A DNA stretch of 64,000 nucleotides from Utricularia gibba. Its lineage: Eukaryota; Streptophyta; Magnoliopsida; Lamiales; Lentibulariaceae. Under the pieces are notes generated by a model. The model was not told the origin of the DNA. It worked only from the letters and a program-made list of their open reading frames with translations, and did no database searches. Positions 13,397 to 51,513 of this stretch are shown in pieces; position 1 is the first letter of the stretch; every line of letters starts with the position of its first letter. Position numbers and translations under genes: made by a program. The stretch covers positions 6,076,001 through 6,140,000 of the forward strand of contig CM007990.1 of assembly GCA_002189035.1 (NCBI GenBank). Reading direction: 5' to 3'.

Positions 13397-15512
13397 ATGG
13401 ATGTCTCAATGAAATCTGAATCAAGATTGGATGTGTCAGTTTCATTTGGTCGATATGCAAATGATGCACTGTCTTGGGAGAAGTGGTCATCTTTCTCGCC
13501 GAATAAGTATCTGGAAGAAATTGGAAGCTTATCAACGCCTGGCTCTGTTGCTCAGAAGAAGGCCTACTTTGAGGCTCATTACAAGAAGATCTCAGCTCAC
13601 AAAGCTGTGATGTCAGGGCGGGAAAATCTGATAGCCCCTGATGTTTCAAGCAATGATGCTCCTGGAAACATTTCGTCTGACATGAGCAATGAATCAGTAG
13701 CCCTAAACGATGCAAAGTTTGTCGAAGAAGTCATAGGAGATTCCTGTTTGATTGTTTCTTCCTCCAAAGGCATCGCGAAACACACAGAAGACGTTAACGA
13801 ATTATCATCTGGAGGTATTAGCTTTGCTGCTCGGATGTATGCAATAGCCTCTGATGGGGAAAGGGTGAATGTTCCTAGGGTGAATCTGCTGGCCAAAGAT
13901 GAGCCGGGTGACAGTGCAACTCTTCCCGAGTTCAATGCAATAAATGATTCTGGATTGGATATTGTAGATTCTCATCAAATTCTCTCTGATTCGGGGAAAA
14001 ACACCATCCTTGAGAAATCTGTTGCCATTAAAGCAAAGAAATCCAATTTGAATCAAACTGGCAACACTGTTCGAAAGGTAAAATAGCGTCTTGTTTACCC
14101 TTTCTGTTACAGTTTTCTGGTGTCACTGTTGATCCCATTTTGCACCTGTGGTAGTCCACTACAGTGAAAAAGGAAACATGTTCAGCTGGAAGCGTGAAAA
14201 AAGTTGTGTCATCATCGAAGCAATTGCCAGCACGTACGAATTTAAAATCAGTGTCAACCTCAACTCCCACATCTGATTCTCAAGCTTCGAAAAAAAAGGT
14301 TAATGGATCACCCAGCAGAGAAGTAAGACTCTCCTGGCTCGAGATAGCAAGAAAATAGCTCCTACATCATTGCACTTGTCCCTTAATTCTGGTCCTGCGG
14401 CATCTTTTGTTGCTCACTCAACATTAAGGAAGTCATCAGTTTTGGAAAATATGGGGATAAGGATATTGTTAGACGTGCTTTCAAGACCTTTAATAAGAGG
14501 GATGATGCTTCTGTTTCTGCTGAGAAGGCATATTCATCGAAGCATGTTAGTGGTTTAACTTTACAGGTTTATATCTCTCTATGATAATCCAATAATTGTA
14601 CGTTTTTGCCTGCCACAAACAGTGTCTTTCCACTTAATATTATGCTGTCTTAACTTGGCAGGAATTCTCTTCCCTCCTGAGCTAAAGAGGGCCATTTCTC
14701 GGACCCCTGTGAAGGGAAATGAAGGGTATATACTTGTCGTTCTGATAGTAAGAAAATTAGAATGATGCATGCGGCTATGAAAGATTTCTCATTTCGTGTC
14801 AGAAATCTGGTTTCCTGCTTTTTTCATTCCCAGATCGAAATTTTGTTGGTGCTATTTGCTGGAGTGAATTTTAGATCGTGCCATGGACTTATGGATCTCC
14901 TTTTTGAATCTTCCGCACTTTCGATAAATCTGATGAGAGATGTCCAGCTCTCTGATATGTGATCACTTCGTTTACTCGCAAGTCTTCTATAGATGAACAA
15001 ATCATACTGACAGAAATCCAATTTTCAGGCTGAACAAGGAATCTGAGAAGATAACTACGAGGACTGCATCAAGTACAAGATCGAACCCTTTGCCCGGGTA
15101 ACATTTTTCTCCCTTTCATCATTTTTCATCTTTCTTGAATACTCAAACTGAGGATTCTTGACTTATTCACAGATCACATAAGAAGTATGAAATGGGTTCA
15201 TCACCGCGCGTTTCGACTATTGAGAAGCCGAGAGAGGTATTGGTGGCCCCTCATCTACTCCCCATTGGTTACTTGCATACATGGCTTATTTCATTTTTGC
15301 CAACGGTAAATCATGCTGCAGCTCCCAAGTAAGTTGCGGTCAAAACCAAACCTAAATGTGGCTGGAAATGCTAAGCAAAGCGAAGTCTCAAAGGCAAGCT
15401 GCAAGGCTAAAGCAGAATGCCCCTATACTGATGATTCAGATTTTGAAAGATTGATTCCTATCATGCAGGTGGCCATCAGGAATGAGAAACTAAGCCAATC
15501 GCTATCGATCAG
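13397..15512 (+). pseudogene. WVD2-like (TPX2 family) gene, frame-broken and lacking a visible TPX2 domain
   Basis: Exon 1 (13397-14077) is intact and typical of WVD2-like proteins: SFGRYANDALSWEKWSSFS, KYLEEI, and KKAYFEAHYKK. Exon 2 (14155-14566) encodes KKVNGSPSRE, then LARDSKKIAPTSLHLSLN, then DKDIVRRAFKTFNKRDDAS, but these lie in three frames. Single missing bases are implied near 14333 (C run) and 14454 (G run). Further exons 14662-14725, 15029-15097, 15173-15236 and 15322-15512 can be joined (KESEKITTRTASSTRS, KLRSKPNLNVAG), but the first needs another shift. No TPX2 block (KRKEF..KLEEK, LRKSL.FKA) is found before the formin gene. The family binds cortical microtubules. Either the gene is truncated and decaying, or frame errors plus real loss combine. 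Conserved exon 1 suggests recent function. Confidence 0.72.
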
Positions 15513-15908
15513 GTAAGAACTCTTTGTCGCATTATGAAATTACAGTACGTTGTCAAAGCGAGGCTTTCCAAGGACTATGGGGTGTACTAGTTTTGTGTAG
15601 AGAAGAACCTGATTATCATGGCCTTTTGCCCAATCCTCAGCTGATGCTTGTATGTACTTCAGCAGTTGCCTCTATTATCCAAAAGCAAGCAGTATTTCTG
15701 ATCATGTACTAACTGTTTGGGTTAGTTCCAAGGCAAAGGTAGTGAAAAAAATGTAACGGAGCATTACATGTGCTAGTGCTCTGCTCAACGGCTGACTTTC
15801 CTTACATTTGTTGTAATAAATCATTTGCATAAACCAACGAGAAGCAGCAACATCTGTGTCTGATTTCTTTCTTGACCAACTCATTTTTCCATTATTTCAT
15901 CTGACCTG

Positions 15909-18321
15909 TTACACACTGTCCGAGTCCGAGTCTGAGGCTTGAGACAGAATCTGTCGGAAGTTCAGGGAACCTGAAGGCCCTCTGTGATCCTCATGCGGGC
16001 CAGAAGACGAGCTGACCAAATATTTCATCTTTTCCCCTTTTTGCACGTTCCGGGTGATTTCGAGACAGACCTGATCAACCATTGCCAGGAAATCTCTTAT
16101 GATGACGAACAACTGAAATGGATTCTTCTCGTAGTCCTTTGATGACCCTGCATGGTAGTAGTTCGTCGTTCTCTTCACAAACTCCATTACGCGAGTTTGC
16201 TCTTCTTTAACTACTTGCATCTCCATTTCTGCAGTTTCAAGAAACCGCTTCATTCTGTCGGGAAATCTTCCCTCGGATCCACATTTCTCCACACTCCTCC
16301 CAATTTCAGGAATCTGGGTCTCCAAGGCTGATATGGCTTTGACAAGAGCATCGTTGTCCAAAGTTGCTGCCTTTTTCACGTTAGAGAATTCTGAACTTAA
16401 ACCGCCTACGATGGGCAACCCATAGATCATGTATTCTCTCTCTGTATCTTCATTCTGCGAACTCTGTTTTTTGTTCCTCAAGCAGCGCTTTCCCTCTGCA
16501 CGAACCACTTCTTGGACAACAAACTGGAGGAGTGTAGTTTTTCCATCAGAACCTTTAACGTCAGATAGTTTATTCAGAGCATTGAGGTTGAAAGCCTGTG
16601 CATTTCCTCTCCATGTGCCTGCGTTTAATCTGTTCCCGGTCTTGAGAACAGCTTCCAGAAGCTTCATGAACAACCCACGAGTTCTTAGTTCTTTGCAGGC
16701 ATATTCAAGAGACTGCAAAGATTCTCTGACGTGGGAAACCTCGGAGTCATAGGTTGCCTTAAAGAGCATAGCTTTGGAACGGGTGAAGGCAGAAGGGACA
16801 GCTCTGAGGAGATGGTAGAGGAATGATTCAGCGTCTGCAAGTTTAGTGGGATCTCCATCAAATGCGAGAAGTTGGGATGTTTCTTCTTGTGTTGGGGCAA
16901 TTTTTCCAAGTTTTTCAATGGTCTCAACGTGAAGGCCGTGCCCTTCAATGAGTGAATCCATGATTTCTTCACGTGTGGCACCCAGAGATTTCAGCACAAT
17001 AGCTGTGTTCTGAGATTTACGAGGATCAAGGATGAAACTGTGAGAAGGTGGGCCTGTTTTTGCTTGTCTAGGAGTGGATGATAAGTCATTGCTTATGGTG
17101 TTAGCTGTGTATCCGAACAGCAATTCCATTAGATCACCATCGAAGCTGCAGAGAAATGAAACCTTGTAAAAGAAGGGAAGCAGTAGAAGGGATTGAATCT
17201 AGAGTGGGCGAATGCCTTACCTGAAAGAGCCCTTGATAACGTTATCCCACACCATGGAATGGTCAGGATTTGGATTCACCTTTTCCCAGTGCAGAGGCTT
17301 CAGTTTGACTTCTGCATCTCTGTTTCTTGGCGTGGTTTCTCCGGGGGAGACGACAACGCCGAAGCGTCGGCTCTCAGCTTAGGGGGCAGAGGTTGAGCAG
17401 GAGGACGTCGTCTGCTGGGCGGTAGCGGTAGAGGAGGAACCGGTGCAGCCAACGAAGCTTGATTGGACCGTGGGGTGGTGGAGCAGGGCGTTTGATTGGC
17501 GGTGGCGGTGGAGGAGGAGTGGCTGCAGCCAGCGAAGACTGTGTTGACAGTGTGGGCAGTGGAGTAGGACGTTTGATGGGTGGCGGCGGTGGAGGTGGCG
17601 GAGCAATTCGGGACGGAGCCACCTCAACATCAACCGACAAGGACTGCAGCGGAGGAGAGGATGGTCTGTTTCCAAATCGAAGATGCGAATCTCGTATTTC
17701 CTCCAGTCTCCGATCCGTATCAACCCTGAAACCTCCATGAGAAGTAGAAAACATACTCTGGAGAAGAAGAAGTTTTTCACTCGAGGGCGATGATTCTTGG
17801 GTAATCGCCGTTGCTCGCTGGTCATCGTCTAAGCTTCTATAGATCTGTTTCTTGAAGTTTAATCCGTTTCCGCCGTGTTCCCAAATCCTCCAATACACCA
17901 TATCCACCCCATTCTCATCCACGATCACTCCCTTCAGATCCCAGTTCACGCGAAGAAAAACATCATTCAATGACAACACCGTCTTCCGGTCTTCATCCGA
18001 CGCTAAACCAGGTACCCTGTTTCGCTGGTCGAATCCGCAGCACCACAGGAACAAAACTAAAAAAGTCCCAGATATAGCCAAAGTAGTCGTAAATGTCACC
18101 GCGACAGCCCCCCAAGTCGATAATACTCTCGGAGGCGGAGGAGACAAACTAGGCGGAGGCGAAGGTGGAGGTGGAAGTGGAGGCGGGTGAAGGAAGGGGT
18201 AGAATGCCTGCTTGTTCTGCTCGTAAGGTGTTTGAGAATATGCCCCAGTGATGATAACCGAAGCAAAGATGAGGAGGAGGAAGCGAAGGCTCGAAGTTGA
18301 CGCCGGCATGGACATGGACAT
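15909..18321 (-). CDS. Type I formin (FH1/FH2), with apparent frame breaks in the FH1 region
   Basis: The first exon (18321-17221) encodes a signal peptide ([19 protein letters not shown]), a Pro-rich extracellular stretch, a membrane segment ([14 protein letters not shown]) and FH1 proline runs. The second exon (17145-15909) encodes the FH2 actin-nucleating domain: [51 protein letters not shown] and ending [26 protein letters not shown] joins the two through a phase-2 splice. Between FH1 and KPLHWEK the frame moves twice, near 17472-17475 (CCCC; five C would restore) and 17304-17306 (AAA; four A would restore). The intervening frame reads [17 protein letters not shown], sensible FH1 sequence. 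Alternatively, a 150-base intron could bypass it. Type I formins link the plasma membrane to actin. Confidence 0.85.
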
Positions 18322-19005
18322 GGCCAGGCAACAGGGCGGGAGTGCCTCGGAGACGATTCTCCATTTGTTGACGGTGCGCCCACCCCGAATCGTAATTGTC
18401 AACGCAGACAGCCGGCGTTGATTCATTCATTCATTCCCCTGCCGGCACCTACGCCGTTGACTACATATCTAGAGGATGCGGTTATTGTTGGGCTTTCGCG
18501 ACCGGCCCATTTTCGGTGGGCATTAAATGCGTGCGTCAAAGATAGGCCGACGGCCCCAGTCGTTGTTCCAACAAACCCTCTTCATTGCCTCCTTTGAATA
18601 CCCACCCAATCAATCCCATTTTATTTAATTACGCCCCGCCCAGCCCAGCCCAGCCCAAACCCAACCCATCCCTTGGTATAAATAAGAAAGCAATTTTTCT
18701 ATAATTTCCAAAATCCTAGGAACGGTCTGGTCTCTCTCTCTCTCACTTGGTTGCTGGGTTGAGTTGAGGTGGGGAACTCTACGACACTGGGGAAGAAGGG
18801 CTTTCCTTCGATAATCCCTATTGTTGATCCGGGGGAGGATTTGCCCCGGCATTGGCTTTCCTTTTTTCGAATTTCATTCTCGGGAGCCATTCTGGAGGGG
18901 TTTGGGTTGTATTCATGTTGCTGGGGAAAATGCCGGATTCCTCGGAGATCTGACCCGTTGATGATCTTCTTCCTTTTTTCTTGGCTTTTGTAAATCTGGA
19001 ACGAA
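18322..19005. promoter_or_regulatory. Divergent promoter region between formin and ARG1-like genes
   Basis: The 684-base gap between two divergent start codons contains GGCCCA at 18504-18509, a GCCCA tandem at about 18638-18657 and a (CT)n tract near 18731-18744. The CT tract may lie in the ARG1-like leader. Site II-like elements suit housekeeping promoters; shared control is inferred only. Confidence 0.45.
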
Positions 19006-21332
19006 ATGCCGGGTACCAAGGAGAAAGGGGGTGTTAAGCAGCAGCTGCGGCGGGATCCGTACGAGGTTTTGGGGTCAATAGGAGCTCTACGGATCAAGAA
19101 ATTAAGAGCGCGTACCGGAAGTTAGCGTTGAAGTACGAAGCTTTACCTGTTATTGTCGATACTCTTGAATTTTGGTTTGGAGATTTGTTACAACGGTCGA
19201 TTCATGTGCCTTGAAATTGGTGATTCCCGGTACAAACTTTGTCTCTCTGGCTGTTCTGTGAATTTCAGGTACCATCCTGATAAAAATCCAAATAATCCTG
19301 AAGCTGCTGATATCTTCAAAGAGGTCACTTTCGCGTCCAGCATTTTGTTAAATCCAGATAAAAGACGGCAATATGATGTAGCCGGTTTTGAGGTGATTTT
19401 TTTCTGAATGACTGATCCACGGTATTTTGGTTCCGCGCTGTGCTTTTGCGTTCAAGTTTGAAGTTTCACGTTGCATCAGGCTGTTGAATCGAGTAGCCAG
19501 GATCTGGAACTTGATCTTTCAAGTTTAGGAACTGTTACTACTGTATTTGCTGCAATTTTCAGGTTAGTCTGTGTACCTCATGAGATTCTACACTCTCAAT
19601 TGGTCAAATCACAGCATGACTTCGCGTTGTTTCTGGTACCAGCAAGCTTGGAGTTCATATCAGAACTACAGTCGCAGCCACGGTTTTGGAGGAGGCATTG
19701 AATGGTTCTGTAACTATCCGCCCTCTCTCGCTTGGGAAGCCTTTGTGTGAAAAGGTACACCGTTTATTATACTACAGAGACGGTTCGAATATAACTTGCG
19801 TTTCATCTTGATATCAGGTGGAAAAGCAGTCTGCTCATTTTTATTCAGTAACCATAACAGAAAAGGAAGCAAGGGCAGGAATCGTGTGCAGAGTTTATGC
19901 AACGGAAAAATGCAAGTTTAAGGTACTTTATTTTCTTCTACAGCATTACACCAAATGCTCGCTGTTTTATCTTTTTCCTCGATGACTGTGTATCTATTGG
20001 CTTTTGCAGCTATTGTACTTTGACAAGGAGCAGAATGGTGGGCTGAGTCTTGCTTTACAGGTTGAGATCCTGATTCATATTTTCAATCTTCAGTTTGTTT
20101 CCTTGGACGTAACTTAACTGCACTTTCCATATGCAATACGCTGGAGTTATAATCAAAAAATCATGTTTCCATATGTTTTTTTAAAATTTTCCCAACATAA
20201 AACCAAACTTTGTGACTCTTTACCTCCAACCTTCGTGGATTATATCAGAGATAAACTGGTAGGACGAAAAAATGCTGTTTTTTTCCCTCGAAATCAAAGT
20301 ATTGGCAAGAAGTTTGACCCTGGCACAACTGGAAATTTGTAATGATAGTGCAATTTCATGATGTTCACTGCCCAGTTTCTGTTTGTAGGAGGACAGTTCA
20401 AAAAGGAAGCCTGCATCTGCTGCCATGTTCTTCCTTGGGTTCCCTGTCTACAGGATGGATCACATACAATACCCTGTGAGTATATTTGCTGTAACGAACT
20501 ATTCAAAATGTCGAACACCCTCTTTTTTTTTTCCTTATGATTATTGCGGATCTTGGTACAGCTAGCAGCTTCAAAAGACCCTGAGGCTGCTTTTTTCAGG
20601 AAGCTGGATGGCTTTCAGCCATGCGAAATGACAGAACTGAAGTCCGGCACTCATTATTTTGCAGTTTATGGTGCAACAACGAATCCTTCAGCACTGCCTT
20701 ATTACTGGCAACTCGAATCTTATTGTGGCTAACACATTTTTTTTCTGTTTGGGACTGCAGGAGATAATTTTTTCAAAAGTGTGAGCTACACTATCGAAGT
20801 TCTTTCTGCTGCATCCTTTTCTGAAGAGAAAGAAAATCTGAGATCTGTGGAAACACAAATTTTGGAAAAAAGAGCCGAACTTGCTAAATTTGAGACCCAA
20901 TACAACGAGGTTTGCAGTTGTTTGAATCCCAGCAATGGTCTTTATCTCAGGCTTGTGTTGTTGCTTATCTTCTAGCGAACCAAGCAGGTCCTAGCACAAT
21001 TTTCCGGGATGACGAGTAGATATGCGCAAGAAATGCAAAGTGTAAGCTGAAGATTGGCGACCGTGATCCTGCGTACTCTACTCTTCCCATCTCTGTTTTG
21101 TGTTAACAACTTAACTTGGGTGCCTTGGTGAACAGATTGACGAGCTACTTAAAGAATGGCATGGCGTGCGTGCTTCGTATACGATAGCGCCACAGGTGAA
21201 GCAGAGCAGAAGCACGAGCAAGGACACCGAAGACGCCCCCCTCGCGACAAAAGCAAGAGGCGGGATAAGATGAAGAGGAAAATATGGCAACACTGGAAGT
21301 TGGAAAAACGGAAGCCCTGCGGCGTCGACTGA
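19006..21332 (+). CDS. ARL: ARG1-like DnaJ protein (altered response to gravity family)
   Basis: Eleven exons: 19006-19132, 19269-19392, 19480-19562, 19643-19754, 19818-19922, 20010-20060, 20389-20475, 20562-20670, 20761-20909, 20976-21041 and 21136 onward. The J domain is N-terminal ([26 protein letters not shown] with HPD, FKEV, KRRQYD). The middle matches ARG1/ARL proteins ([53 protein letters not shown]). The C-terminal coiled coil is predicted from [18 protein letters not shown]. Two single-base losses are implied: G4 at 19071-19074 ([10 protein letters not shown] needs five G) and C6 at 21236-21241. As sequenced the last exon stops at 21273; with a seventh C it reads [13 protein letters not shown] to 21332. 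ARG1 family proteins act in gravitropism at endomembranes and actin. Confidence 0.9.
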
Positions 21333-21645
21333 CTGAGTATGCCGGCCATTGCCAGTTACCGCGGCGCGTGCAGAGTACTCTCCCCTCCTGATCAATTCCT
21401 TGATTATAGTAGTGTAAATTTATGACCTCGGACTTGTCTCTCGGAGAACCTGGTGAACGCAGCCGGTTGTACCGTCCGTCCGTCTCTCCGTAACCTTCCT
21501 CTGCCCCTTCGTTATTTTATGTTGTAAATCTTTTGTATTTTTATTTTCAAAATATTTATTGCTGTATGAGAAAGAATCCTGGAAGAGAGAATCTTAGGGA
21601 GAAAAGAATTAAAAAGACATGTCAAGGACGAAACTCCATGGCCGT

Positions 21646-22635
21646 TCAGTTGGAGGACAGCGAATTCGGAGAGTCGCATTTCCGGCGGATTTCGCCTTTC
21701 CGCCCCGTCTTCACCCCGAGAACACTAACCTTCTCCATGGAGTGAGCAAAAGCTTGGAAGAAGGCGTTCTGATCCTTGGCGTACGTATCCACAAATGGCT
21801 TCGTTCTTGGATCGAACGCCATGGCCTGATCGCTGGCTAGCAGCGACACACCCCTCTGCAAGTTTTGGAAATATGAGTTGTCGAATCTCCCCGGGCTCAT
21901 CGGATCGTTGAAGGCAGCGATTGTGGGATCCTTTTTGTAGTTTTTGCAGAGGTTTCGTAGACCTTGGGCGTAGTCAGGATTGATGGAAGGATCGATTTGA
22001 GAGGATTTGCTGAAATTGAAGATTCTGGAGGCGAATTCGGAGCAGTGGGTGAATCCGATGGTGTGTGCGCCGGTGAGGGCAACCATTTCCTGGACATTGA
22101 ATCCCTTGGCAGCGAAGATGTTGATGATGTTGGAGATTGTCATGTTGGGTAGGGCAATATGGCCGTCGACGTCGCTGGCGTGGGATTCGAACGCGTCTTT
22201 GCGGCCGAGGCGGACGGGGTAATACGGCCCGCCGACCATCGAGATGAGATCTCGAGTCGCCTCGGCCAGGATGTCGGAGCAGGAGACGGTGCCGGGGCAG
22301 GCGAGTTCCAGCTTGGTTTTAGCGCGGATGACGAGGTCGAATGCGTCGCCGGGGAGTGCGCGATTGGCTTCGTAGTCGCGTTCTGCGAGATTGAAGGGGG
22401 TGGAGGAGAGGAGGAGGGAGGCGTCGCAGCCCCCGACGACGCAATCGTGGAAGAAGAGGCGGAGGGTGCCGGCGGCGGTGGTGGGGATGGACAGTTGCTT
22501 CTCCACCACCACGTCCTGGACGATTGTACCGAATTGAGGGCATGCTTTGTGGTAGTAGTCGAGGGAGAGCTTGGAATGCGCCGGCGGGAGGATGGGCAGG
22601 AGGAAGAGAATTGGAAGCAGAACCGTTGGCGCCAT
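21646..22635 (-). CDS. Class III secretory peroxidase, intronless
   Basis: A 329-residue protein. The start at 22635 (MAPTVLLPILFLLPI) gives a clean signal peptide; an in-frame ATG 14 codons upstream is less likely. Catalytic features are present: distal GTLRLFFHDC with Arg and His, VGGCDAS calcium site, and proximal MVALTGAHTIGF. All eight conserved Cys for four disulphides are visible (KACP, FHDC, GGCD, LACP, VSCSD, THC, NLC, RKCD). The SIPTTAAGTLRLFFHDC context and lack of introns resemble the Arabidopsis PRX31/41 group. It would be exported to the cell wall to oxidise phenolics or generate reactive oxygen. It is convergent with the ARG1-like gene (313 bases apart) and divergent from CYCD1. 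Confidence 0.94.
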   Translation of the reverse strand: MAPTVLLPILFLLPILPPAHSKLSLDYYHKACPQFGTIVQDVVVEKQLSIPTTAAGTLRLFFHDCVVGGCDASLLLSSTPFNLAERDYEANRALPGDAFDLVIRAKTKLELACPGTVSCSDILAEATRDLISMVGGPYYPVRLGRKDAFESHASDVDGHIALPNMTISNIINIFAAKGFNVQEMVALTGAHTIGFTHCSEFASRIFNFSKSSQIDPSINPDYAQGLRNLCKNYKKDPTIAAFNDPMSPGRFDNSYFQNLQRGVSLLASDQAMAFDPRTKPFVDTYAKDQNAFFQAFAHSMEKVSVLGVKTGRKGEIRRKCDSPNSLSSN

Positions 22636-22792
22636 CGAACGAACGGTGGAAGGGGAAAGGAGTAAATTGTTTTTCACCTCCGCTTCAAATGTAAACTGGT
22701 GACTCGTTGACCGTACTTATTTCACCCAGGGCCTCCTCCTCCGCCATTCCCTCGCTTCCATCCATCGCTTCTTCTTCTTCTTCACGTGGGTC

Positions 22793-22846
22793 TGGGCCTT
22801 GGGCGCCATCCGAGTCCGATGACCAAACCACCGCACCCGGTGGGCC
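22793..22846. promoter_or_regulatory. Two TGGGCC elements between divergent peroxidase and CYCD1 genes
   Basis: TGGGCC occurs at 22793-22798 and 22841-22846 in the 579-base interval between the peroxidase start (minus) and the CYCD1 start (plus). Site II elements are typical of cell-cycle and housekeeping promoters, so they more likely serve CYCD1. That assignment is inference. Confidence 0.4.
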
Positions 22847-23214
22847 TGCCCTCTGCCGGCCCGAAAAACCCCAGTCATGACTGATGACTTATGATGATTC
22901 TCATCATCCCCATTCCTATAGGTAATTAACTTTCGACCCTCTCCTTTCTGGTTATTTCCAAACGTGGTTCAAAATCTGGTGCTCTTTTCAGATGCTGACA
23001 AATGAAGGAATAATGAGAAATATTAGTGGTGTCCATTTCTATATCTCCAATTCCAAAGCGGAGAGCGGGTTGAGAGCAACCACAGTGGGAATCACACTCA
23101 TCCCTCCCCCACTCTCGCCACCCACCACTGCCAACATGCCGCCGTATTTCCCGGCGAGCCTCCTCCCACCAAAAATAGACTAGGTCTCGCTCCAACCCCT
23201 TGAAACTCTCACTC

Positions 23215-25037
23215 ATGTCGTTCTCCTGTTCCGACCGCCTCTCCTCCTCCGACCTCCTCTGTGCCGAGGACTCCGCCCTCGTCTTCTCCAAATACGGAGA
23301 TCACTCGCCGGAATACGTATCGGACATCGAATCCACCCCATCGGAGTTGGAGGATCCCGTATCCCAACTTCTAGAAGAAGAGAGAAGTCTCACCTGGATT
23401 ACTTCTCGTATCCCCGTCAACCCGACGGCGCCGCCGCTAGAGCGGAATCCGTTGCATGGATTCTCAAGGTACTTTCCATTATCTGTCCGATTCGATTTCC
23501 TATTCGCTCAAATAATTGGTATGCACACCCCATCGGAGTTGGAGGCTCGGAAGTACGTCCGGACGATGAAAAGGATCTGTCTCCGGCGCAAGTCAGCTTT
23601 AACGCCGTGTCTAGTGCATATCTCCGTTAATTGACGGCACTGTACTTTCCTGTTGTGGCGCAGGTGCAAAATTATTATGGATTCCAGCCACTGACGGCGT
23701 TTCTCTCCGTCAATTTCTTCGACCGTTTCTTGCACTCCCATCCCTTGCCGGTAATACCTCCGTCGTGACAATTATCAGCTGTTTTCCTTTTTTTGTAGTG
23801 AAAAATAAATTCCGGTTGGTGTTATTTTCCGTTTATTGGGTATAATATTAAAATATAATATAAATAAAAAATTAAAAAACGGAAAAGCATTGGCCGGCCA
23901 TCTATCTGTGTAGAGTAAAGTCTCCAGCCCCTCCACCGCAGAGAGGCTTCAGAGGGCGTCAGTTCATTAATTTCCATAAGGAGCAATGTGCACAGGCGTT
24001 GACTGAACTCCTGTACGAAGGCGTCATTGACTAATGAATAAGATGCATCTTTCAATGTTGGTGTCTGAATCGTTGACCATTTGCTTGTTTTGATGGAAGC
24101 CCTTTTCCCTTAGTATTCGTGTAATGATGATGGAGAGGTTTATTTCGACAGCGGAATAATGGATGGCCTTACCAATTGTTGTCCGTCGCATGCTTGTCGT
24201 TAGCAGCTAAGCTGGAGGAGCCTCTGGTTCCTTCTCTCCTTGATCTGCAGGTATTGTGGTTACATCAAACTTACTTAAAGCAGTCTGCTTTAATGGGGTT
24301 TGATGATGTTTTTGGATGAAGGTTGGAGATGCAAAGTTCATTTTCGAGCCCCGAACAGTCAAAAGAATGGAACTTCTTGTGCTGACAGTATTGGACTGGA
24401 GGCTTCGCTCCATTTCTCCCTTTTGCTACCTTAAATTCCTGTCTATGAAACTGGATCCATCTGGAGCTCATTCCTCATCCATCGCATCAAGGGCGAAGGA
24501 AATCATTCTTGCTGCTGTTAGAGGTACTACTAGTTCCTGTTGATGGATGGCGTTACTGTTCCTTTTTTTTTTCTTTATCGAGTTGTAAGGGGTTTCGCAT
24601 CCACTCAACAGAGATCAGTTTCGTTGAGTACCGACCTTCGTGCATCGCGGCAGCGGCTGTACTTTGTGCTGCGAACACTCTGCCTAACTTTTCATTTGCG
24701 GAATCGTGGAGCCAGGGACTCCACAAAGTAGGACTGACGACGTCCCTGCTTATGATGCGTTTACTTTGTTAATACTAGGACTGGTTTCCTCGTTAATGAG
24801 TGTGAAACAACTGATTTTTCTCGACAGGATGATATTATGAATTGCTACCAAGTGATTCATCAGGTACAGATTAAACAAACGGTGATTGAACAGCAGTCAG
24901 AGGTTTCACCCCAAGTCATCGGATTGATAAGCTCAGCAACCTCAAGCGACTCATGCTCTACATTATCCTCATCGTGTAAAAGGAGGAAATTGGATAACGA
25001 ATCTCGGGAAGAGGAGGAGAAAGGATCCGCTGGTTAA
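23215..25037 (+). CDS. CYCD1: D-type cyclin, CYCD1 class
   Basis: Seven blocks: 23215-23468, 23664-23750, 24152-24250, 24322-24523, 24612-24727 and 24828-25037, about 322 residues (six coding exons seen). The Rb-binding LxCxE motif is present as LLCAE near residue 15. The cyclin box includes ARAESVAWILK, NYYGFQPLTAFLSVNFFDRFL, VACLSLAAKLEE, RTVKRMELLVLTVLDWRLRS and a C-terminal CKRRKLD. One base is missing near 23380-23384: without it, exon 1 leaves the frame of SVAWILK, whereas adding one A restores EKSHLDYF and phase 0 at the donor. CYCD partners CDKA and promotes G1/S entry by targeting RBR. The tail DDIMNCYQVI matches CYCD1 proteins. Exon 1 and intron 1 share an exact 20-base repeat. Confidence 0.9.
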
Positions 25038-36460: not shown

Positions 36461-36484
36461 GGACCGGACCGGACCGGACCGACC
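36461..36484. repeat. (GGACC)n short tandem repeat
   Basis: Four exact GGACC units and a partial fifth lie about 160 bases upstream of the PRPF31 start codon, probably in its promoter or leader. Confidence 0.85.
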
Positions 36485-41475: not shown

Positions 41476-41665
41476 AACATGCCCCTTTTCGGCGGACAGT
41501 GACAGTAGGTTTAAAACTCAATTAAAGAGCTGCAGAATCTCTCTTCTACTGATGTTTGGGCTTAGAGGCAGCTTACAAGTTGTAAATTGTAGTGGGTCAA
41601 GGTGAAATGTAAGGGAGACATGTCGTTTTTTATTGTTATTGTTTAAGGATACTCAAGCCCCATCA

Positions 41666-41737
41666 GCGTTTGTAGTCCAACGGTTAGGATAATTGCCTTC
41701 CAAGCAATAGACCCGGGTTCGACTCCCGGCAAACGCA
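41666..41737 (+). tRNA. tRNA-Gly (anticodon UCC)
   Basis: A 72-base clover-leaf. The 7-bp acceptor stem is GCGTTTG/CAAACGC with A as discriminator. The A box is TAGTCCAACGG and the B box GGTTCGACTCC, within the T arm CCGGG/CCCGG. The anticodon stem ATTGC/GCAAT encloses loop CTTCCAA, giving anticodon TCC. A T-rich run follows from about 41768, fitting pol III termination. No intron. It lies between the FSD3 3' end and the LHC-like gene. Confidence 0.95.
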
Positions 41738-41788
41738 AGGCAGTCCTCTTTCAGACCCCCATAGGCCTTTTTTATTTTATTAACTCTC

Positions 41789-41836
41789 GGCCCAACTCGA
41801 TGATTGCCTGTTCCTCTTGTAATTGATTTTTGGGCC
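41789..41836. promoter_or_regulatory. GGCCCA and TGGGCC elements upstream of the LHC-like gene
   Basis: GGCCCA at 41789-41794 and TGGGCC at 41831-41836 lie 85-130 bases before the start codon at 41922. They are site II-like; their use is inferred from position only. Confidence 0.35.
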
Positions 41837-41921
41837 GACTAAGGCCCGGTATTAAAAAAGAATGCAACAAAACTTGAAGCGCCAAAGAACCGACATGATC
41901 TATCTATCACCAAGACATCAA

Positions 41922-42485
41922 ATGGCCGCTGTTCTTTTCCCTTCATCTTCTGCTCTGAAGTTTCTCCGGCCAAATCCGGCGGCATTCTCGTCATCATCGC
42001 CACGGCGAGCCGCGTATTTTACCCTCACCGGGCCACCACGTGCCTCAGCCGAAGAAAATTCCACCTCAGTGGACCCTAAATCCGAACAGGACGACAGCTT
42101 CGAGAACCGCCTCTCGAAGGTTCGCCTCCGTTACCCCAGTAGAACCGAAGAAAGAGCCGAGATCAAGAGGTCTAAGAAGGCTAAGAAAAGCGGGTCTGGA
42201 TCTAGCGTTTTCCTCCCGCCTGTGCCTCTTAAGGAGCCCATTTCTTCCGTTGGATTGCCTGTGGAATTCGGGTTCAGCCCGTATTCGGAGCTCTTAAATG
42301 GCAGAATTGCAGTTCTGGGGTTAACCGCTTTGTTCGCCGTGGAGCTCGCCACCGGTAAAGGAGTCTTGAACTATCACTCTCCGGCGATTGTTCTGATCCA
42401 GGTGTATTTCGTGGCTGCTGTTTCTGCTTTATACATCAAGTACGAGAAAGAAGGCAATTCTGTCTGGCCTGATACAAAGCCATAG
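41922..42485 (+). CDS. Small plastid LHC-like (one-helix/HLIP-type) membrane protein
   Basis: A 187-residue intronless protein. The start at 41922 (MAAVLFPSSSALKFLRPNP) gives a Ser/Ala-rich transit peptide; an upstream in-frame ATG exists at 41862. A charged linker (ERAEIKRSKKAKKS) precedes SPYSELLNGRIAVLGLTALFAVELATGKG. This carries the ExxNGRxAV pattern of the chlorophyll-binding helix of LHC, ELIP and one-helix proteins. A second hydrophobic segment (IVLIQVYFVAAVSALYI) follows. The protein is probably thylakoid-bound with a role in pigment handling or photoprotection, by family analogy. The precise subfamily (OHP, LIL or another) was not identified. Confidence 0.75.
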   Translation: MAAVLFPSSSALKFLRPNPAAFSSSSPRRAAYFTLTGPPRASAEENSTSVDPKSEQDDSFENRLSKVRLRYPSRTEERAEIKRSKKAKKSGSGSSVFLPPVPLKEPISSVGLPVEFGFSPYSELLNGRIAVLGLTALFAVELATGKGVLNYHSPAIVLIQVYFVAAVSALYIKYEKEGNSVWPDTKP

Positions 42486-43839
42486 GCTCCTGCTCAATTT
42501 CTTTGTGTTTGCTCTAATGCTTGGATGCCATGGAAACACCAATTTCAAGAAATGTTCACACTTTTTTTCTCGAACCCACAAACCGATCAAGCTGCTCAGA
42601 GAATTGCTTGCTCAATTGCAGGCTACGTGTAAGGTGATCGGAGGTGGTTCCTAGTTCCACAAAACACACAGGCACATTTCCACTCTTGTAGCTACTGAAA
42701 GATACAAGGGTTGATTAATATACATTGATGGGGGGAAAAAGCTACCGTTTTCCTCCCATTTAAAGCAAAACAGAGAGGGAGGGAATTGTCTATCACTTGG
42801 AAAAGGGGTGATTCAGTCTCCGTGGCGGACAGAAGGAACTTGTGTATTCCTGTGCATTTTGCAGAAAGGTCCACACCAGAATACCAACGTGGAATCGGAC
42901 CCATTTTTGCGAACATTTCTCTGAATGTGTGCGCCTCCGGAAGCAGGTTGAAGAGGTCGTCGCGGTGGCAGATGACAGATAATATTCTCAGTAACAAGGA
43001 TGGTTCCAAGAAATCCACCAAGAACAGAAAGAAGTAAGGTAGCTCTCAGTAACACCAGATGGATGCTTCCCAAAGGAAGCAGGTTAATACTCGAATAACC
43101 TGGAGTGGACGTCCAACCCAGATTAGTTCAACCTCCAACCAAACCCAGGGCTGAATTGACGAACAAGTATCTGAAATTTTCAAATTTACCTTTGACTTTC
43201 CCCTTCATATCGTCCTTGGATGAGGGAGGTTATGCATCTTGAGCCACGTCAAAGGCACCCGAGGGCCGAGACACCGATGACTATGAAGTTGAATAGTGAG
43301 TCAAGGCAGGCGCAGGCTGGTTCTGGATGATGCTGAGTTTGACATTTTGACATTATGAGATTAGGCAACGTTTGGTTGGCTGCGTCGCCAGAGCAGGTGC
43401 ATGTGTTGTTTTTGGGCGTGTCCGTCCGCATTGACACGACACGGCCACCCTCCCGAGTGTAGTTGCGTGATGACTGTTGACCGTTGAAACAAACAAGAAT
43501 AGTAAACCTCAACTCTTCCTAAAGGTCCGCGATAGCCCCAAGCTAGTAGTGTGTAATGAAGCGATGAGCATTTATTTCCCCACGACGACGTCCGGCAGCA
43601 GAACTCAATCCCTCCCAGACGCGTTCTTCTAGTGTGTGCTTCTCCCATGATGCACGTGCCTCCTTTTTGAGGATGAGGCGGTGCTGCTAGTGATATGGGA
43701 GTGGATGGATGGATACCCGAATCACAATGAGGTGATTGATAGATACCAAGGGCCCCTGCGGCTGCTTCAATGTCAAGGAACACAACACATCTTCGTCACT
43801 CTCCTCTCATCGCCATCAACATTCGGAATCTAATGTGAC
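42486..43839. other. Intergenic region, no supported gene
   Basis: This 1.35-kb interval includes the 3' UTR of the LHC-like gene. Minus-strand frames around 42692-43073 lack an ATG at their upstream ends and match nothing I recognise. A G-box-like CACGTG lies near 43653. Confidence 0.5.
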
Positions 43840-45288
43840 TCATGCATTACGGCCCGGGCGGGCCTCTTCTTCTTCTGCCGCTGCCGCTTCTCCGCCGCCT
43901 TCTCCACCTCTCCTTGATATCATCGCTCTCGGTCTCCACTCCGCCCAATTCCTCCCCTCAACTCCACTTCCTTCTGTATTCCAACTAACCCTCACTCTCC
44001 CAGTTTCATCCACCAAATCGCTTATCAGCATCTCAGTCGTCTTCGTGGTGATCCCCCGCAGGTACCAGGACACCGGCGGCGGAGGAACAAACGCCGGCTG
44101 TATCAACTGCTCCAATCTCACCCTCGTGCCCACCCTCCCCTTACCCCTCGTGCACACCTCGTACTCTGCCAGTGACATGGGTCTCAATGGGTCGCACAGG
44201 TCTTCATCCACCAACAATGGCTCCATTTTCCAGCACCCTTCGAATCTCTCCATGAATCCTGACTTCACTTGTTTGAACTTCATCTGGAAGCAGCCATCAC
44301 AGTTCAAACTGGTAAGATTTGAGATCCACCAACATCCGGAAGAACACATACGTACACCAACGCACACACAAAGCTAACTCTTATGATCAGTCTTTAGGTG
44401 CCAAGATTGATTTTTTTTTTTTAAACTACTTCTCTGGTATAACTAACTGATTGTGAAGACACTTCCGGGCCATACTGGTACAAAATTCGCTTGAACTCTG
44501 TCCAAAGAGAAAAAAACAACAATCTGCATATCTGTAGCTTGAACAGAGAGAGGAGTGCAGTGAGCTTACTGTATAGTCCTCTCTATTCTGATCCACCAAA
44601 ACATGAACTGACAGGGTTCCAGTGAACCACAGAAATCTCCAAATTGCAGCTTGCTCTACTTCGACCATCTGCCTCAGTCCCTCATCAACCACCACTTTTC
44701 TAGATATCACTTCCTGATTTCAACGGAAATCATGAACAACATAAACCTGGAAACAATTTAATTACTGCAAAGGACAATTCGATTCACCTTAATGTTCTTG
44801 AAAACTCTCTTGTTTTCTGGATCAATCACAATGTTGAACACTGCATCTGGGGGCAACCCACATCCACAGTCAGATTAAGCGAAGAAAGACACCCCTTAGG
44901 TATAGTAACCTGCAAAAAGATGCTCAATCAACAGGCTGACGGTCTCGATTTAAGGAAAAATTGATTACCTTTATGTCCGGAGGATGATCAACCCATGCGG
45001 GATTATCCCTCCAGCACCCCATTTGCTTCTCTAAGTTCAATTTCCAGGTACTGGAGCTCCATGAGGCACATTCTAGTTTTTCATTAGTAGAAGAGTCGTT
45101 CTCCAATGATCCATAAGGCAGCTAGGGCAGCACAATCATCGTCCCTTCAATTCAATGACAGTTTCTTACACGAAATTTGATGAATTGAGGGGTTAACTCA
45201 CTCGTACGAGCTCGCTAACTTGCTTCTGGACCCGAGAGACGAATCTGCTCAATGAATCGATGAGAAGATCGGTACGCCCCAAGCCCAT
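43840..45288 (-). CDS. DUF220 family protein, five exons, one apparent frame break
   Basis: Exons 45288-45202, 45121-44969, 44909-44788, 44713-44570 and 44283-43840, about 316 residues. The start [19 protein letters not shown] lies in a short exon. Conserved blocks are [103 protein letters not shown] and TTEMLISDL. This matches plant DUF220 proteins, which have a START-like fold and no known substrate. In exon 3 the frame breaks at a run of five C (minus strand; 44849-44853); a sixth C would restore PPDAVFNIV. With that base, every junction is in phase. The tail is Glu/Ala-rich. The gene is divergent from the DUF1645 gene. Confidence 0.86.
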
Positions 45289-45756
45289 TTTACTGGAAGC
45301 ATTGCCTGCGAGGCAAGATTTTTTTTTTTAAAAAAAAAAAAAAGGGGTGGGTGAGGGGGTGTGGAGGTGGGGTGGATGAACCTTCGGAGTCAGGCGGAGC
45401 GATGGGAAGGCAGATCTTGATGCCACTACCTTTAGACATTTGGTTCTTCTAGGCGAATGAGAAGGAAGGGCTGCGCCGAGAAAGTAGGCGGCGCAGAAAA
45501 CTCATACCCTGACTTTTCCTCATCTCAGCGAATAGCCGGAGAATAAAGAAGAATGGTCGATGCTGGGAGCCGTACTTTCTCTAGAACAAGAGAAAGGTCA
45601 ACACCTGTGTGTGTGTCATTAGTGTGAGTGGTCTTACCCCTCGTGTAACAAAACCGTGTTTCACATTTCGACATCCTATAAAGCGTTTTACATTGAAAGG
45701 GCCTTCTTCAACATCTCCAAAGGATTTGCTGAATCCCATCCCTAGGTCTGTGCGAG
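45289..45756. promoter_or_regulatory. Divergent promoter region between DUF220 and DUF1645 genes
   Basis: This 468-base gap lies between start codons and contains a T-run/A-run block near 45321-45344 and a G-rich segment after it. No further gene was seen. Confidence 0.35.
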
Positions 45757-46602
45757 ATGCAGGCGACCGCGGAGCGGAGCGGGTGCCGGAAGGATGACGC
45801 GAGGTCGGAAATCGAGAGTAGTCTCGATTTTGGAGGAAGGTTGAAGATTGAGGACGATTTGGAAGGTTACGATGTGGAAAAGGAGGATCGTGGAGGTGAT
45901 TTGGGCGAGGAGGAGGAGGAGGAGGAGGAGGAGGAGGAGGAGGAAGAGGAGGAGGAGTTTTCTTTTATGTGTGGAGAATCGGTAGCCACGGCGATTACGG
46001 CGGACGATGCTTTCGTCGACGGTAAAATTAAGCCGATTTTTCCGATATTCGAACGAGATTTGGTGTTTTCGAGCATAGAATCCCAGGATTCGCTTGAGAA
46101 TCTACCGGTTACACCGCCCGTGGAGATGGTTTTAGTGGAAATTAGGGAGGAGGAGCGTGAAGAGGGGAAGTCGCCGGCGCCGGAAGCCGTCGGACCCTTC
46201 TGCGAGTGGTCTAGTCGGAAGGCGGAGGAAGCGCCTCTGCAGATCTGCAAGAAGAGCAATTCGACGGGAACTTCCAAATTCAGGCGGATCAAAGATCTGG
46301 TCGGAAGGTCGAACAGCGACGGAAGAGACGCTTTTGTTTTCCTCAACAAACATCACCCCCCAGCTGCCTCGTCGATGGAGCCAGCGCCGCCCATGACGGC
46401 AGAGAAGAAGGCAAGGAAAATCGTTAGGAAACCGAAGCAGAGTGTAACCAAAACGAGGCCGCCGTCGCCTCACGAGGTTTACTTGAGGAGTAAGGCTAAG
46501 CAGGAAGTGCAGCGGCGATCGTATCTTCCATACCGGCCGGAGTTCATGGGAATCTTCACAAATATCCACGGCGGCCTGTCTAAAAACCTGCACCCCTTTT
46601 GA
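45757..46602 (+). CDS. DUF1645 family protein with a poly-Glu tract
   Basis: A 281-residue intronless protein. DUF1645 features are clear: FSFMCGESVAT, VDGKIKPIFPIFERDL, the RSNSDGRDAFVFL motif near residue 190, HEVYLRSKAKQEVQRR, and the C-terminal SYLPYRPEFMGIFTNIHGGL with NLHPF at the end. The family is plant-specific and lacks an assigned activity; several members are stress-responsive. Residues about 51-67 are an uninterrupted Glu run coded almost purely by GAG, so this is a coding microsatellite likely to vary in length. The gene is divergent from DUF220 and convergent with galactinol synthase. Confidence 0.9.
   Translation: MQATAERSGCRKDDARSEIESSLDFGGRLKIEDDLEGYDVEKEDRGGDLGEEEEEEEEEEEEEEEEEFSFMCGESVATAITADDAFVDGKIKPIFPIFERDLVFSSIESQDSLENLPVTPPVEMVLVEIREEEREEGKSPAPEAVGPFCEWSSRKAEEAPLQICKKSNSTGTSKFRRIKDLVGRSNSDGRDAFVFLNKHHPPAASSMEPAPPMTAEKKARKIVRKPKQSVTKTRPPSPHEVYLRSKAKQEVQRRSYLPYRPEFMGIFTNIHGGLSKNLHPF
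45907..45957 (+). repeat. (GAG)n coding microsatellite
   Basis: Seventeen Glu codons in a row, nearly all GAG, lie within the DUF1645 gene. The complementary strand shows an open poly-Ser frame that is only a shadow of this repeat. Confidence 0.9.
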
Positions 46603-46955
46603 CATGCCACCAAACTGAACTCTGCTCCATATCCAGGCTCTGTTTCTTTCTTCTGTAGGATCAATTCATTCGTTCCGTTTATTCCCATGCAAAGAAACCA
46701 AACACCTGTACAGTTCCAGTTTCATATCTACAGAATTTGATGCAGTAGTTGTACCTCGTAACTCTGTACTGCTTAATGCGCTAATTAATCGTGAAAGAAG
46801 ATACTTTTATCCATCTGTGCTTGGAATTGGGAGAAATTGGTGGTAGTAGTATCGATGATGGCAACACAGGATGAGGATCCCTTCGTGCTATCACACCAGA
46901 ACACAAGCGAAAGACAATTAGTGTAGTAGGATAAGACGATCGGACAGAGTGGGTC

Positions 46956-48144
46956 TTAGGCAGCAGAGGGTGCGGGAATGTATGAAACCTCTGGCTCGGG
47001 AAGAGAAGCCAAGATGGTCGCAGCAGCTGGCTTCGAGTCCGCCGGTGAGTCGAGGGAAGCATCGTCGTAAACATCGAACCACTTCTTCACCAGATATTTG
47101 ATGTCCTCACGGTCCATGTTGGCCTCCACACCGGTGTACCTCCACGGCTTTGATCCCTGCTCCGGAGGCGGAAAGACAACAGCTTTACTATAAAGAGATC
47201 CCTTTTAGGACTTGCGGGGAAGACATTACCGCGGCGCAGTAGTGAACAACAACAACTTTCTCCAGCTCAACGTTCTCGGGATGGCGCCAAAGCATAGCGA
47301 GCACAAGGTTGTAGACCAGAGGAATTGGCTTGTAGATCGATTGGAAGAACATGTTGAGGAAATCCTGTAAATTGACCGACGTTAGTACGAATCTGGATGC
47401 AGATACGTTTTCCAACATGACACCACCTGCTCGGCAAAAGGTGTGGGAGGAGTGACGCGCAGAGTTGAGAGGAGATTCTCATAGGTCTCCAAGCTGGGCT
47501 CGTGAACGAACATGCCGGCGTTGAAGTAGAGCGGAGGAGGGGATCCCATCTCCGCCGGCCACGTCACCTTATCGGGGCACTGCTGGCAGTACCCGATCTT
47601 ATACTGGGGCGAGTGGCTCCATGTTTTCTCACAGAAGCAGTCCATCACAGCGTAGAAGTAGCCGTTGGGAGTGTCGAAAAGATGGTCGATGTTCTCATAA
47701 ACTTGGATGTCTGCGTCAAGGTACACCATCTTCTCGTACTCCACGAACTGTGCAACTTATCAAGTCTCTCTGAGTAACAGCAACAGAAGACTAATTTTTT
47801 TCTGATGTGCATAGAGAGAACTTACGCTCCAGATCCGGAGTTTGGAATAGTTGATGACATAATAAGCCATGGCGAACTGAATCTGGTTTTCCGGTGGGTA
47901 AATCGGCTCGATCTCCCTCACAATGCATCCCTGCGACCGGAGAAGTTGGCGGTGCTCCTCCGGGACGTCGGGAAGAATGGCAACCACCAGAGGATAAGCG
48001 CTCTTGACCTTTTTGAGGCCCTTGGCGAGCCCAACGGCTCCCTTCACGTAGTCACCGTTGCCTGCCAAGAAAGTGACATAGGCTCTGTTGGTGGTGGGGC
48101 TTGGTGGCGGCGGGGAGGGATTCGACTGGTGCTACCGGGGCCAT
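46956..48144 (-). CDS. GolS: Galactinol synthase (GT8 family)
   Basis: Exons 48144-47826, 47747-47427, 47364-47230 and 47156-46956 encode about 324 residues. Family blocks are present: AGNGDYVKGAVGLAKGL, PLVVAILPDVPEEHR, AYYVINYSKLRIW, the metal site YLDADIQVYENIDHLFD, FCEKTWSHSPQYKIGYCQQC, PPLYFNAGMFV, TPPTPFAEQDFLNM, VHYCAAGSKPWRYTG and the C-terminal APSAA signature. The enzyme joins UDP-galactose and myo-inositol to make galactinol, the first step to raffinose sugars in the cytosol under cold or drought. Family members usually read DGD where this reads DAD. A run of four G at 48096-48099 puts the N-terminus out of frame; three would give KPTTNRAYVTFL, so one base looks inserted. Confidence 0.93.
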
Positions 48145-48801
48145 CTCTGGAGGCTGAAGACTCGCAGGAAAGCTACGTAACTCTGGAGTGCCTTCTTCCC
48201 GAGTCTGGAATACTGCTGCTGTGGTGGCTTGGCTTATATAGACAGAGCTAGCTCGAAGGAGATGCTGAAACCAAATCCAGATAAAAAGTGCATACCCCTT
48301 TTCTTTTCTTTCAATATTCTTGTGTCCAGTTATGAATGAATAACTGTGCGCAAATGCATTCTCATCTCAGAATTATTTATTTATTTCCTGGAAGAGCGTC
48401 GAGCGTTTGGAGTCAACTCTCCCCAAGCCAATCTAAAAGCACAAAAATAGAAAGAGGATGGAATGTACCTACAAATACATGATGCATATACGCATACACC
48501 TTTATTCTTCGACAATGGAATATTATGAAGAAGAGTTGTGTGAACAAAAATGTAATCGCAGCTGCGAATAAAGTTTTTTATTCCTTTTTCCTGGGTGAAT
48601 ATTGATTTGAAAAGCAGGCACAGGTGTCGAGCAGCAGAGTGGCCACCACAGCCAGAAGCGAAATACAACACAGAACACAAGTATCAAGGATAAAGACATA
48701 AGATGCACCCCGCGGACCACTTGGGACGATCACGCCTGCCATCAGCCCAAAACAGGTTATTGAAATGCATGTAGTGCGCAGACGCCAAAGCAACTATTGT
48801 A
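48145..48801. other. GolS promoter side and ARF1 3' region
   Basis: A 657-base gap between two minus-strand genes. It must hold the ARF1 3' UTR and the GolS promoter and leader. No additional gene was recognised; stress elements could not be assigned with confidence. Confidence 0.4.
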
Positions 48802-50082
<1,281 letters not shown>

Positions 50083-50691
50083 TTCCTGTTTTCTGCGAGA
50101 ATAGCATTGTCAACGTCCATACAAAAAGAGCATAAGAACACAAATCCATTCGATTTGGAAACTTATAGCCAATATGCAGAGAAAATGAAACTACAAGAGG
50201 ATCTGATAAACGGACAGCGACTTGGATAAAAATCAGATCTGAAACATTTCCACAGACAACAACCACTGGATCGATACCGAAAGAGGACAGCACAACAAAA
50301 AAAAACGGGAAAACCCTTCAATGACGATTGGACGACATCGACCATTCGCTACGTAGATCGGATACGCCTCAGAGAGGCGATCTCAAGAAATATCGTACCC
50401 GGTGCGGAGAGATCTGGAAGAACAGCAGGTATCACACTGGAGGAGAAATGGAAGATCTGGTGCTTGATTTTGGGTTCCGGGTTGACAAAACTTAAATACT
50501 TGAATTCCATTTTAATGAATTGATGCTTCTCATTTTTTAAGTTTTAATAAATGCCCGCCGGCCGAGTTTGGAAATAATAATTATTCTTATTTTCCCTTCT
50601 GATGTCATACGTTCATCCGCAGTAGCAGGGACTGGGAGCATCCATCGCGCGCTTTCTGCTTCCTCCGTTGCAGCAGCCCTCCAGGTTTGTG
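50083..50691. other. ARF1 promoter/leader and INO 3' region
   Basis: A 609-base gap with an A-rich tract near 50298-50306; the ARF1 leader may contain an intron, as is usual for this family. No other gene was seen. Confidence 0.35.
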
Positions 50692-51513
50692 CTAAAACTG
50701 AGGGCGATGCGCCCACTGAACACGTCAAGGAAGTATCTGATGAGTTGCCTCGGTACATTGTAAGCAAATGCTGCTGTTCGTTCAGCACTTACGTTCTTGG
50801 AAGCGGTGGCAAAAGCTCCCCTGTGGCTCATCTCCGGGTTCTCTGTCTTCAGCCTCTTGATTTCATGCCTATACACGTAGTGCAATGCTTTAGTGTTAAT
50901 AATGCAAACACAAGACGTTGTTAGGCTAACAATTCTTGTACTTGATGAAGCTATTGTAGGCTGATCGTGGACGCTGCTTCTTCTCGGGTGCTGACGAACA
51001 AAAAGGAAAGGCATCCCCTTTCATCCTTCTCTGATGGTGAAGAGGCTGGACTGTAACATGCCTCTGTTAACTTGCCAGCGGACGGGATTTCTTCAGGAGC
51101 TGCTTCCAGTTTGTGCTGAATCTAGATGCGATTCGTGGTTATAAGAGAGCGTCCGCCATGACTTACAGAGAGCATAACGTATGGCCCATCAAATGGTTAC
51201 ATAGATCATAAAACACTCACCCGGGGTGAACAAGTTTCACTGAGACGAAATAAAGCAAGTTTCCTCATATCAACAGAGAGCATGCCGGTGCAGTGACCGC
51301 ATCGGATCTTTACAGCCATGCATAACCTGGTGCTTGGAACGAGAACCTGCCGCCATGTTAAAACAGATAAGGGATGAGATGACAGAAACTCATGCCAAAA
51401 CATTGTCTTAGCAGATCTGGGAAGTTGATTACAAGTAAGACTGTACTGCAAAATCCACATTTCATGTAGATAGGTTGCTCCTTGAAGCTCGGGGAATTTT
51501 CCAAGTCCCCCAT
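50692..51513 (-). CDS. INO: YABBY transcription factor, INNER NO OUTER (INO) type
   Basis: Exons 51513-51433, 51346-51221, 51121-50942, 50868-50793 and 50715-50692 give about 161 residues. The C2C2 zinc finger is split by intron 1: PIYMKCGFCSTVLL, then VLVPSTRLCMAVKIRCGHCTGMLSV. CGFC.T.LLV and RCGHCT..LSV match INO rather than FIL, YAB2, YAB5 or CRC. The HMG-like YABBY domain is EKKQRPRSAYNSFIK, then HEIKRLKTENPEMSHRG, and ASKNWAH. INO specifies the outer integument of the ovule. In exon 3 the frame shifts near 51019-51021 (TTT on the plus strand; two would restore EKDE to GDAFPFCSSAPEKK). The protein ends WAHRPQF, much sooner than Arabidopsis INO. The start at 51513 could instead be 13 codons upstream only with a non-ATG codon. 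Confidence 0.82.

What the first reader, a model, noticed from the sequence alone, without database searches (positions are those of the whole stretch)
13397..51513. Recurrent one-base frame breaks in homopolymers across seven conserved genes
Single-base losses are implied in WVD2-like (about 14333, 14454), formin (17304-17306, 17472-17475), ARG1-like (19071-19074, 21236-21241), CYCD1 (about 23380-23384) and DUF220 (44849-44853). Single-base gains are implied in GolS (48096-48099) and INO (51019-51021). Almost all lie in runs of three or more identical bases, and each single change restores both the conserved protein and splice phase. Genes at 27-42 kb and 53-63 kb have none, so errors look patchy. 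This favours long-read polishing errors over decay of core genes. Automated annotation would wrongly truncate these proteins.
Basis: partly seen in the sequence, partly recalled or inferred. Interest (0 to 1): 0.6.

Follow-up and report, generated by a model that had tools for sequence, protein, structure and literature searches.

The report
Genome-wide homopolymer errors breaking intact genes
The broken reading frames in these plant genes are almost certainly mistakes in the genome assembly, which tends to drop one base from short runs of G or C across the whole genome, so the plant's genes are probably intact.

Summary
The frame breaks are in the sequence, and consensus error is the best explanation, but several details of the finding need correcting.

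Within-genome paralogs confirm breaks in WVD2-like (two), formin (two), CYCD1 and GolS. They move two coordinates: CYCD1 breaks at C4 23411-23414, not 23380-84, and formin break 1 is at G5 17343-47, not 17304-06. The INO and GolS "gains" could equally each be two losses.

Every break that can be placed to a single run in the window is one base missing from a G/C run of at least 4 (7 of 7; such runs make up 2% of the affected CDS).

The defect is not local. One-base losses also occur on other contigs: in the closest GolS homeolog, three cytosolic HSP70s, two HSP90s (3 breaks) and four PPR genes (6 breaks), 13 of 13 being losses.

The clearest test is a pair of redundant contigs (C241/C304). Over 8.8 kb they show 0 substitutions and 3 one-base differences, all in homopolymers.

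The claimed patchiness mostly reflects where G/C runs are: the unbroken genes examined at 27-42 and 61-63 kb contain one G/C run of 5 or more. One GST fragment (8.58-8.87 kb) does look decayed, with mixed lesions. The feature is an artefact of low interest.

The parts
14304..14356 (+). WVD2-like break 1: one base missing somewhere in this interval (overlap of the two open frames); no single run identified
   Evidence: Frame-aware alignment to two paralogs puts it at 14309 or 14318; open frames
14453..14456 (+). WVD2-like break 2: one base missing at GGGG (ENMG|DKDIVRRAF)
   Evidence: Both paralogs give the same site, 14452
17343..17347 (-). Formin break 1: one base missing at the GGGGG run
   Evidence: One-base gap against the C451:148k homeolog (L055) at this run
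17472..17475 (-). Formin break 2: one base missing at the GGGG run
   Evidence: One-base gap against L055, which has one more G
19071..19074 (+). ARG1-like break 1: one base missing at GGGG inside the DnaJ domain ([24 protein letters not shown])
   Evidence: Fused DnaJ 92-95 bits over 1-63; the separate frames 26 bits or no hit
21236..21241 (+). ARG1-like break 2 (moderate support): one base missing at CCCCCC near the C-terminus
   Evidence: Frame change restores a basic tail (DKSKRR...) loosely like the paralog tail SKDKSKKK; the unbroken frame only adds a short non-conserved tail
23411..23414 (+). CYCD1 break: one base missing at the CCCC run (corrected position)
   Evidence: Both paralogs (L002, L003) align in frame past 23380-84 and break at 23411
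44849..44853 (-). DUF220 gene break: one base missing at the GGGGG run
   Evidence: 113-nt exon has stops in all three frames; fused protein hits DUF220 at 98.9 bits, though in other exons; no paralog in the genome
48088..48107 (-). GolS N-terminal break: net +1 (one gain near GGGG 48096-48099, or two losses) between the start codon and RAYVTF
   Evidence: Length between ATG and RAYVTF out of phase with paralogs L010, L012 and L013; the L013 alignment shows two separate one-base gaps
51000..51040 (-). INO (YABBY) break: net +1 (one gain, or two losses at G4 and T5 runs)
   Evidence: Frame change between the linker and YABBY C-terminal exon; YABBY_N 60.3 and YABBY 70.2 bits on the fused protein; no close paralog, so location uncertain

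Best explanation
The window is part of a noisy long-read assembly whose consensus is too short by one base in a sizeable share of short G/C homopolymers, genome-wide. The seven genes are probably intact in the plant. Each break is one base dropped (in two cases possibly two bases dropped, or one added) by the consensus, which shifts the frame until the next exon or stop. Shown here: one-base lesions, G/C-run location, the same lesion in unrelated essential genes on other contigs, purifying selection downstream, and redundant contigs differing only by homopolymer length. Inferred: that reads would show the longer runs, and that the platform is PacBio CLR with HGAP/Quiver (assembly size and contig number fit the Utricularia gibba long-read genome).
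For: (1) 7 of 7 localised window losses lie in G/C runs of >=4, which make up 2.1% of affected CDS. (2) Elsewhere: GolS homeolog C451 lacks one base at a C run; HSP70 at C451:3343.9k (G3), C496:433.4k (C3), C304:2236.3k (G5); HSP90 at C451:2558.45k (C4), C255:3189.5k (C3) and C255:3189.6k (T4); PPR genes L074, L075 x2, L078 x2, L079. All 13 are one-base losses, 10 clearly at G/C runs, 2 at G or T, 1 at T. (3) Redundant contigs C241/C304: 16497-25300 of C241, 0 substitutions, 3 one-base indels A8/A7, C5/C4, C4/C3. (4) Formin FH2 exon, downstream of both breaks, dN/dS 0.18 against the homeolog (dS 0.58); GolS exons 0.03-0.28. (5) Published precedent: after Quiver, 205 residual indels 'nearly all' within G or C homopolymers (PMC4832174); U. 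gibba was assembled from 88x SMRT reads with HGAP (PMC5793159).
Against: No reads or transcripts were available. At 88x with Quiver one would expect fewer errors, so the held version would have to be poorly polished. HSP70 at C304 and its redundant copy C241 share the same break, so error there would have to be systematic, or the break real. Cytosolic HSP70/HSP90, GolS and formin have surviving copies, so loss of one copy is tolerable. dN/dS averages over the whole branch and cannot date a recent break.
Confidence: 0.94

Rival explanations
1. Real, recent pseudogenisation of duplicated genes after whole-genome duplication: slippage in homopolymers knocked out one copy of each gene.
For: Most affected genes have paralogs; homopolymers are real mutational hotspots; U. 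gibba is known for heavy gene loss after duplication (background knowledge; PMC10663240 cites high fractionation).
Against: No nonsense substitutions or larger frameshifting indels in the fused genes; all 21 securely directed events are losses (P about 1e-4 if 65% of real indels were losses, an assumed figure); G/C rather than A/T runs; essential single-copy-type genes hit genome-wide; redundant contigs differ only in run length. The GST fragment in the same window shows what real decay looks like here: mixed lesions and no second domain.
Confidence: 0.04
2. A local low-quality patch: errors confined to 14-24 kb and 44-51 kb because of low coverage there.
For: 6 of 11 G/C runs of true length >=5 are short in 14-24 kb against 1 of 9 elsewhere in the window (Fisher p = 0.07).
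Against: Same lesion on at least eight other contigs; unbroken genes NHL, AP1G, PRP31, LIL and CPSF6 at 27-42 and 61-63 kb hold only one G/C run >=5 between them, so few breaks are expected.
Confidence: 0.1
3. Some breaks are not indels at all but missed introns, non-canonical starts or variable tails (INO linker, GolS N-terminus, ARG1 C-terminus).
For: INO and GolS breaks lie in poorly conserved stretches; the ARG1 tail is variable.
Against: GolS spacing is out of phase with three paralogs and the aligned frame has no start codon; an INO intron would have to be under about 40 nt by eye.
Confidence: 0.1

Closest known systems
Residual G/C-homopolymer indels in PacBio CLR assemblies after Quiver (e.g. 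Streptomyces albus SM254, PMC4832174)
   Same: One-base indels concentrated in G or C runs that create apparent frameshifts
   Different: Here in a plant nuclear genome at a much higher rate (of the order of one per few kb of the CDS examined), almost all losses; no short reads available to confirm
Frameshift errors in a PacBio Plasmodium falciparum assembly (PMC5964635)
   Same: Long-read consensus giving false frameshifts dominated by homopolymers
   Different: There mostly in tracts >14 bp; here in short G/C runs of 3-6
Processed or fractionated plant pseudogenes
   Same: Disrupted reading frames in duplicated genes
   Different: Lack the mixed lesion spectrum and relaxed constraint expected of decay

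Membership tests
Consensus homopolymer error of noisy long-read assemblies | Lesions are one-base indels located in homopolymers | tested here: met
   7 of 7 localised window losses and at least 11 of 13 outside lie in runs; WVD2 break 1, GolS and INO not localised to one run
Consensus homopolymer error of noisy long-read assemblies | Independent consensus copies of one locus differ in run length but not by substitutions | tested here: met
   C241/C304: 0 substitutions, 3 one-base homopolymer differences in 8.8 kb
Consensus homopolymer error of noisy long-read assemblies | Present genome-wide in unrelated genes, including essential ones | tested here: met
   HSP70, HSP90, PPR and GolS copies on other contigs
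Consensus homopolymer error of noisy long-read assemblies | Reads or transcripts support the longer (or shorter) run | not testable with these tools
   No reads held for this genome
Consensus homopolymer error of noisy long-read assemblies | Assembly made from PacBio CLR reads without short-read correction | tested here: inconclusive
   Size 100.09 Mb in 516 contigs fits U. gibba; the review gives 88x SMRT, HGAP, but 581 contigs; original paper not held
Pseudogenes | Relaxed constraint downstream of the lesion | tested here: not met
   dN/dS 0.18 (formin FH2), 0.03-0.28 (GolS exons); long-term average, so a very recent lesion is not excluded
Pseudogenes | Mixed lesions: stops, larger indels, splice loss | tested here: not met
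   Only one-base frame changes needed in the seven gene models; INO may have a truncated C-terminus

The most novel reading that the evidence does not exclude
The shorter G/C runs are real: this lineage has a strong one-base deletion bias at G/C runs that hits even essential genes, with function kept by redundancy or by frame correction at the RNA or ribosome level.
Probability: 0.01. Interest if true: 0.8.

Novelty: not a real feature. Interest (0 to 1): 0.12.

Why it matters
It does not show new biology, but it is a practical warning. In this assembly a share of G/C runs in coding sequence is short by one base, so predicted proteins (including HSP70, HSP90, formin and cyclin D copies) will be truncated, and counts of pseudogenes, gene losses or microdeletions made on it will be inflated.

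Tried and rejected
A redundant contig covering the window itself does not exist in the assembly, so the contig-against-contig test was made at C241/C304. The first PPR tally (69 genes, no frame change among the listed motifs) seemed to contradict a genome-wide defect; looking at the shortest ORFs showed six breaks in four genes, so that tally was insensitive because few motifs per gene were listed. The PPR sample was enriched for short ORFs and gives no unbiased rate. A CCT/Cpn60 survey has too many short exons to score breaks. Peroxidase at 21.6-22.7 kb was rechecked and is open in one frame.

Full report
What the window is. It is C2:6076001-6140000 of a 100.09 Mb, 516-contig genome. Gene content is that of a flowering plant. 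Size, contig structure and dense duplicated blocks fit the long-read genome of Utricularia gibba; this identification is an inference. A review lists that genome as 88x SMRT reads assembled with HGAP (PMC5793159); the original paper is not held.

Checking the breaks. Paralogs in the same genome were then used as references. WVD2-like: paralogs on C451 and C3 are open in one frame where the window needs three; a frame-aware alignment puts break 2 at GGGG 14453-14456 with both, and break 1 at 14309 or 14318 within an overlap of 14304-14356. Formin: the C451 homeolog (79% protein identity) is open, and the window lacks one base at G5 17343-17347 and one at G4 17472-17475. CYCD1: both paralogs run in frame through 23380-23384 and break at CCCC 23411-23414. 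GolS: the distance from the start codon to RAYVTF is out of phase with three paralogs; the best alignments allow one gain or two losses. ARG1-like: the DnaJ domain is complete only when the two frames are joined; the second, C-terminal break is less certain. DUF220: the exon has stops in every frame, and no paralog exists. INO: single copy, break in a poorly conserved linker, location uncertain.

Is it more than chance. The sharper pattern is that all seven localised losses lie in G/C runs of at least four, which make up 2.1% of the affected CDS, or 7.8% with a 6-nt margin (about 2e-8). Against A/T runs of the same length, 41 G/C to 73 A/T, seven of seven in G/C has a chance of about 8e-4. These tests are post hoc and the exon limits were set by hand.

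Is it local. The first PPR survey found no frame changes among listed motifs, but the shortest PPR ORFs turned out to be broken pieces of longer genes: six one-base losses in four genes. HSP70 and HSP90 tables show adjacent or overlapping matches in contiguous profile positions, each shifted by the loss of one base: three in HSP70 (C451, C496, C304 with its copy C241) and three in HSP90 (C451 and two in C255). Their contexts are G3, C3, G5 and C4, C3, T4 runs inside invariant chaperone sequence. The closest GolS homeolog has its own one-base loss at a C run. So 13 of 13 breaks found outside the window are losses, most at G/C runs.

A direct test of the assembly. Contig C241 (31 kb) repeats part of C304. 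Over 8.8 kb the two have no substitution and three one-base differences, A8/A7, C5/C4 and C4/C3; a neighbouring 1 kb stretch does carry 16 substitutions, so the tool would have seen divergence. True divergence would give substitutions in excess of indels. This is the signature of consensus uncertainty in homopolymers. One caveat: the HSP70 break at C304 is shared by C241, so that one is either a systematic error or real.

Decay as a rival. Downstream of both formin breaks the FH2 exon has dN/dS 0.18 at dS 0.58; GolS exons have 0.03 to 0.28. No nonsense substitution or larger frameshifting indel is needed in any of the seven models. In contrast, a GST fragment at 8.58-8.87 kb in the same window has a one-base loss, a 4-nt tandem duplication, a further frame-changing deletion and no recognisable second domain: that is what decay looks like here. 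INO is the gene for which real decay is least excluded: single copy, net +1, and a splice acceptor leading to WAHRPQF and a stop.

Patchiness. The unbroken genes that were examined at 27-42 kb and 61-63 kb contain a single G/C run of five or more, so no breaks are expected there. Counting runs of true length five or more, 6 of 11 are short in 14-24 kb and 1 of 9 elsewhere (p = 0.07). A local effect is not excluded but is not needed.

Comparison with what is known. After Quiver polishing of a PacBio assembly, 205 residual indels were found by short reads, nearly all in G or C homopolymers (PMC4832174); false frameshifts of this kind are also described for Plasmodium (PMC5964635). The window fits this class in every feature that could be tested; read support could not be tested.

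Verdict. Not a biological feature.

Noticed in passing
window 8578-8870 (-): Tau-type GST N-terminal fragment with several lesions (one-base loss at GGG, 4-nt tandem duplication GTCCGTCC, a further frame-changing deletion) and no second domain nearby: a plausible true pseudogene and a useful contrast.
   Followed up: partly
window 50690-51515 (-): INNER NO OUTER-like YABBY is single copy; a good acceptor gives WAHRPQF then TAG, so the C-terminus may be truncated. Could be relevant to ovule integument biology in this lineage.
   Followed up: partly
window 23346-23366 and 23528-23550 (+): A stretch of CYCD1 exon 1 (CCCCATCGGAGTTGGAGG) is repeated in intron 1.
   Followed up: no
L069/L088 (C241:10001-25300) against L089/L070 (C304:2228701-2244000): Small contig C241 repeats part of C304 without substitutions over 8.8 kb, then with 16 substitutions clustered in about 1 kb, then diverges: a redundant contig, haplotig or very recent duplication.
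   Followed up: partly
C451:115-149 kb (L010, L055), C375:3.03-3.06 Mb, C412:128-171 kb: Homeologous blocks of the window: GolS and formin on C451, CYCD1 and GolS on C375 and C412, consistent with repeated whole-genome duplication and heavy fractionation.
   Followed up: partly
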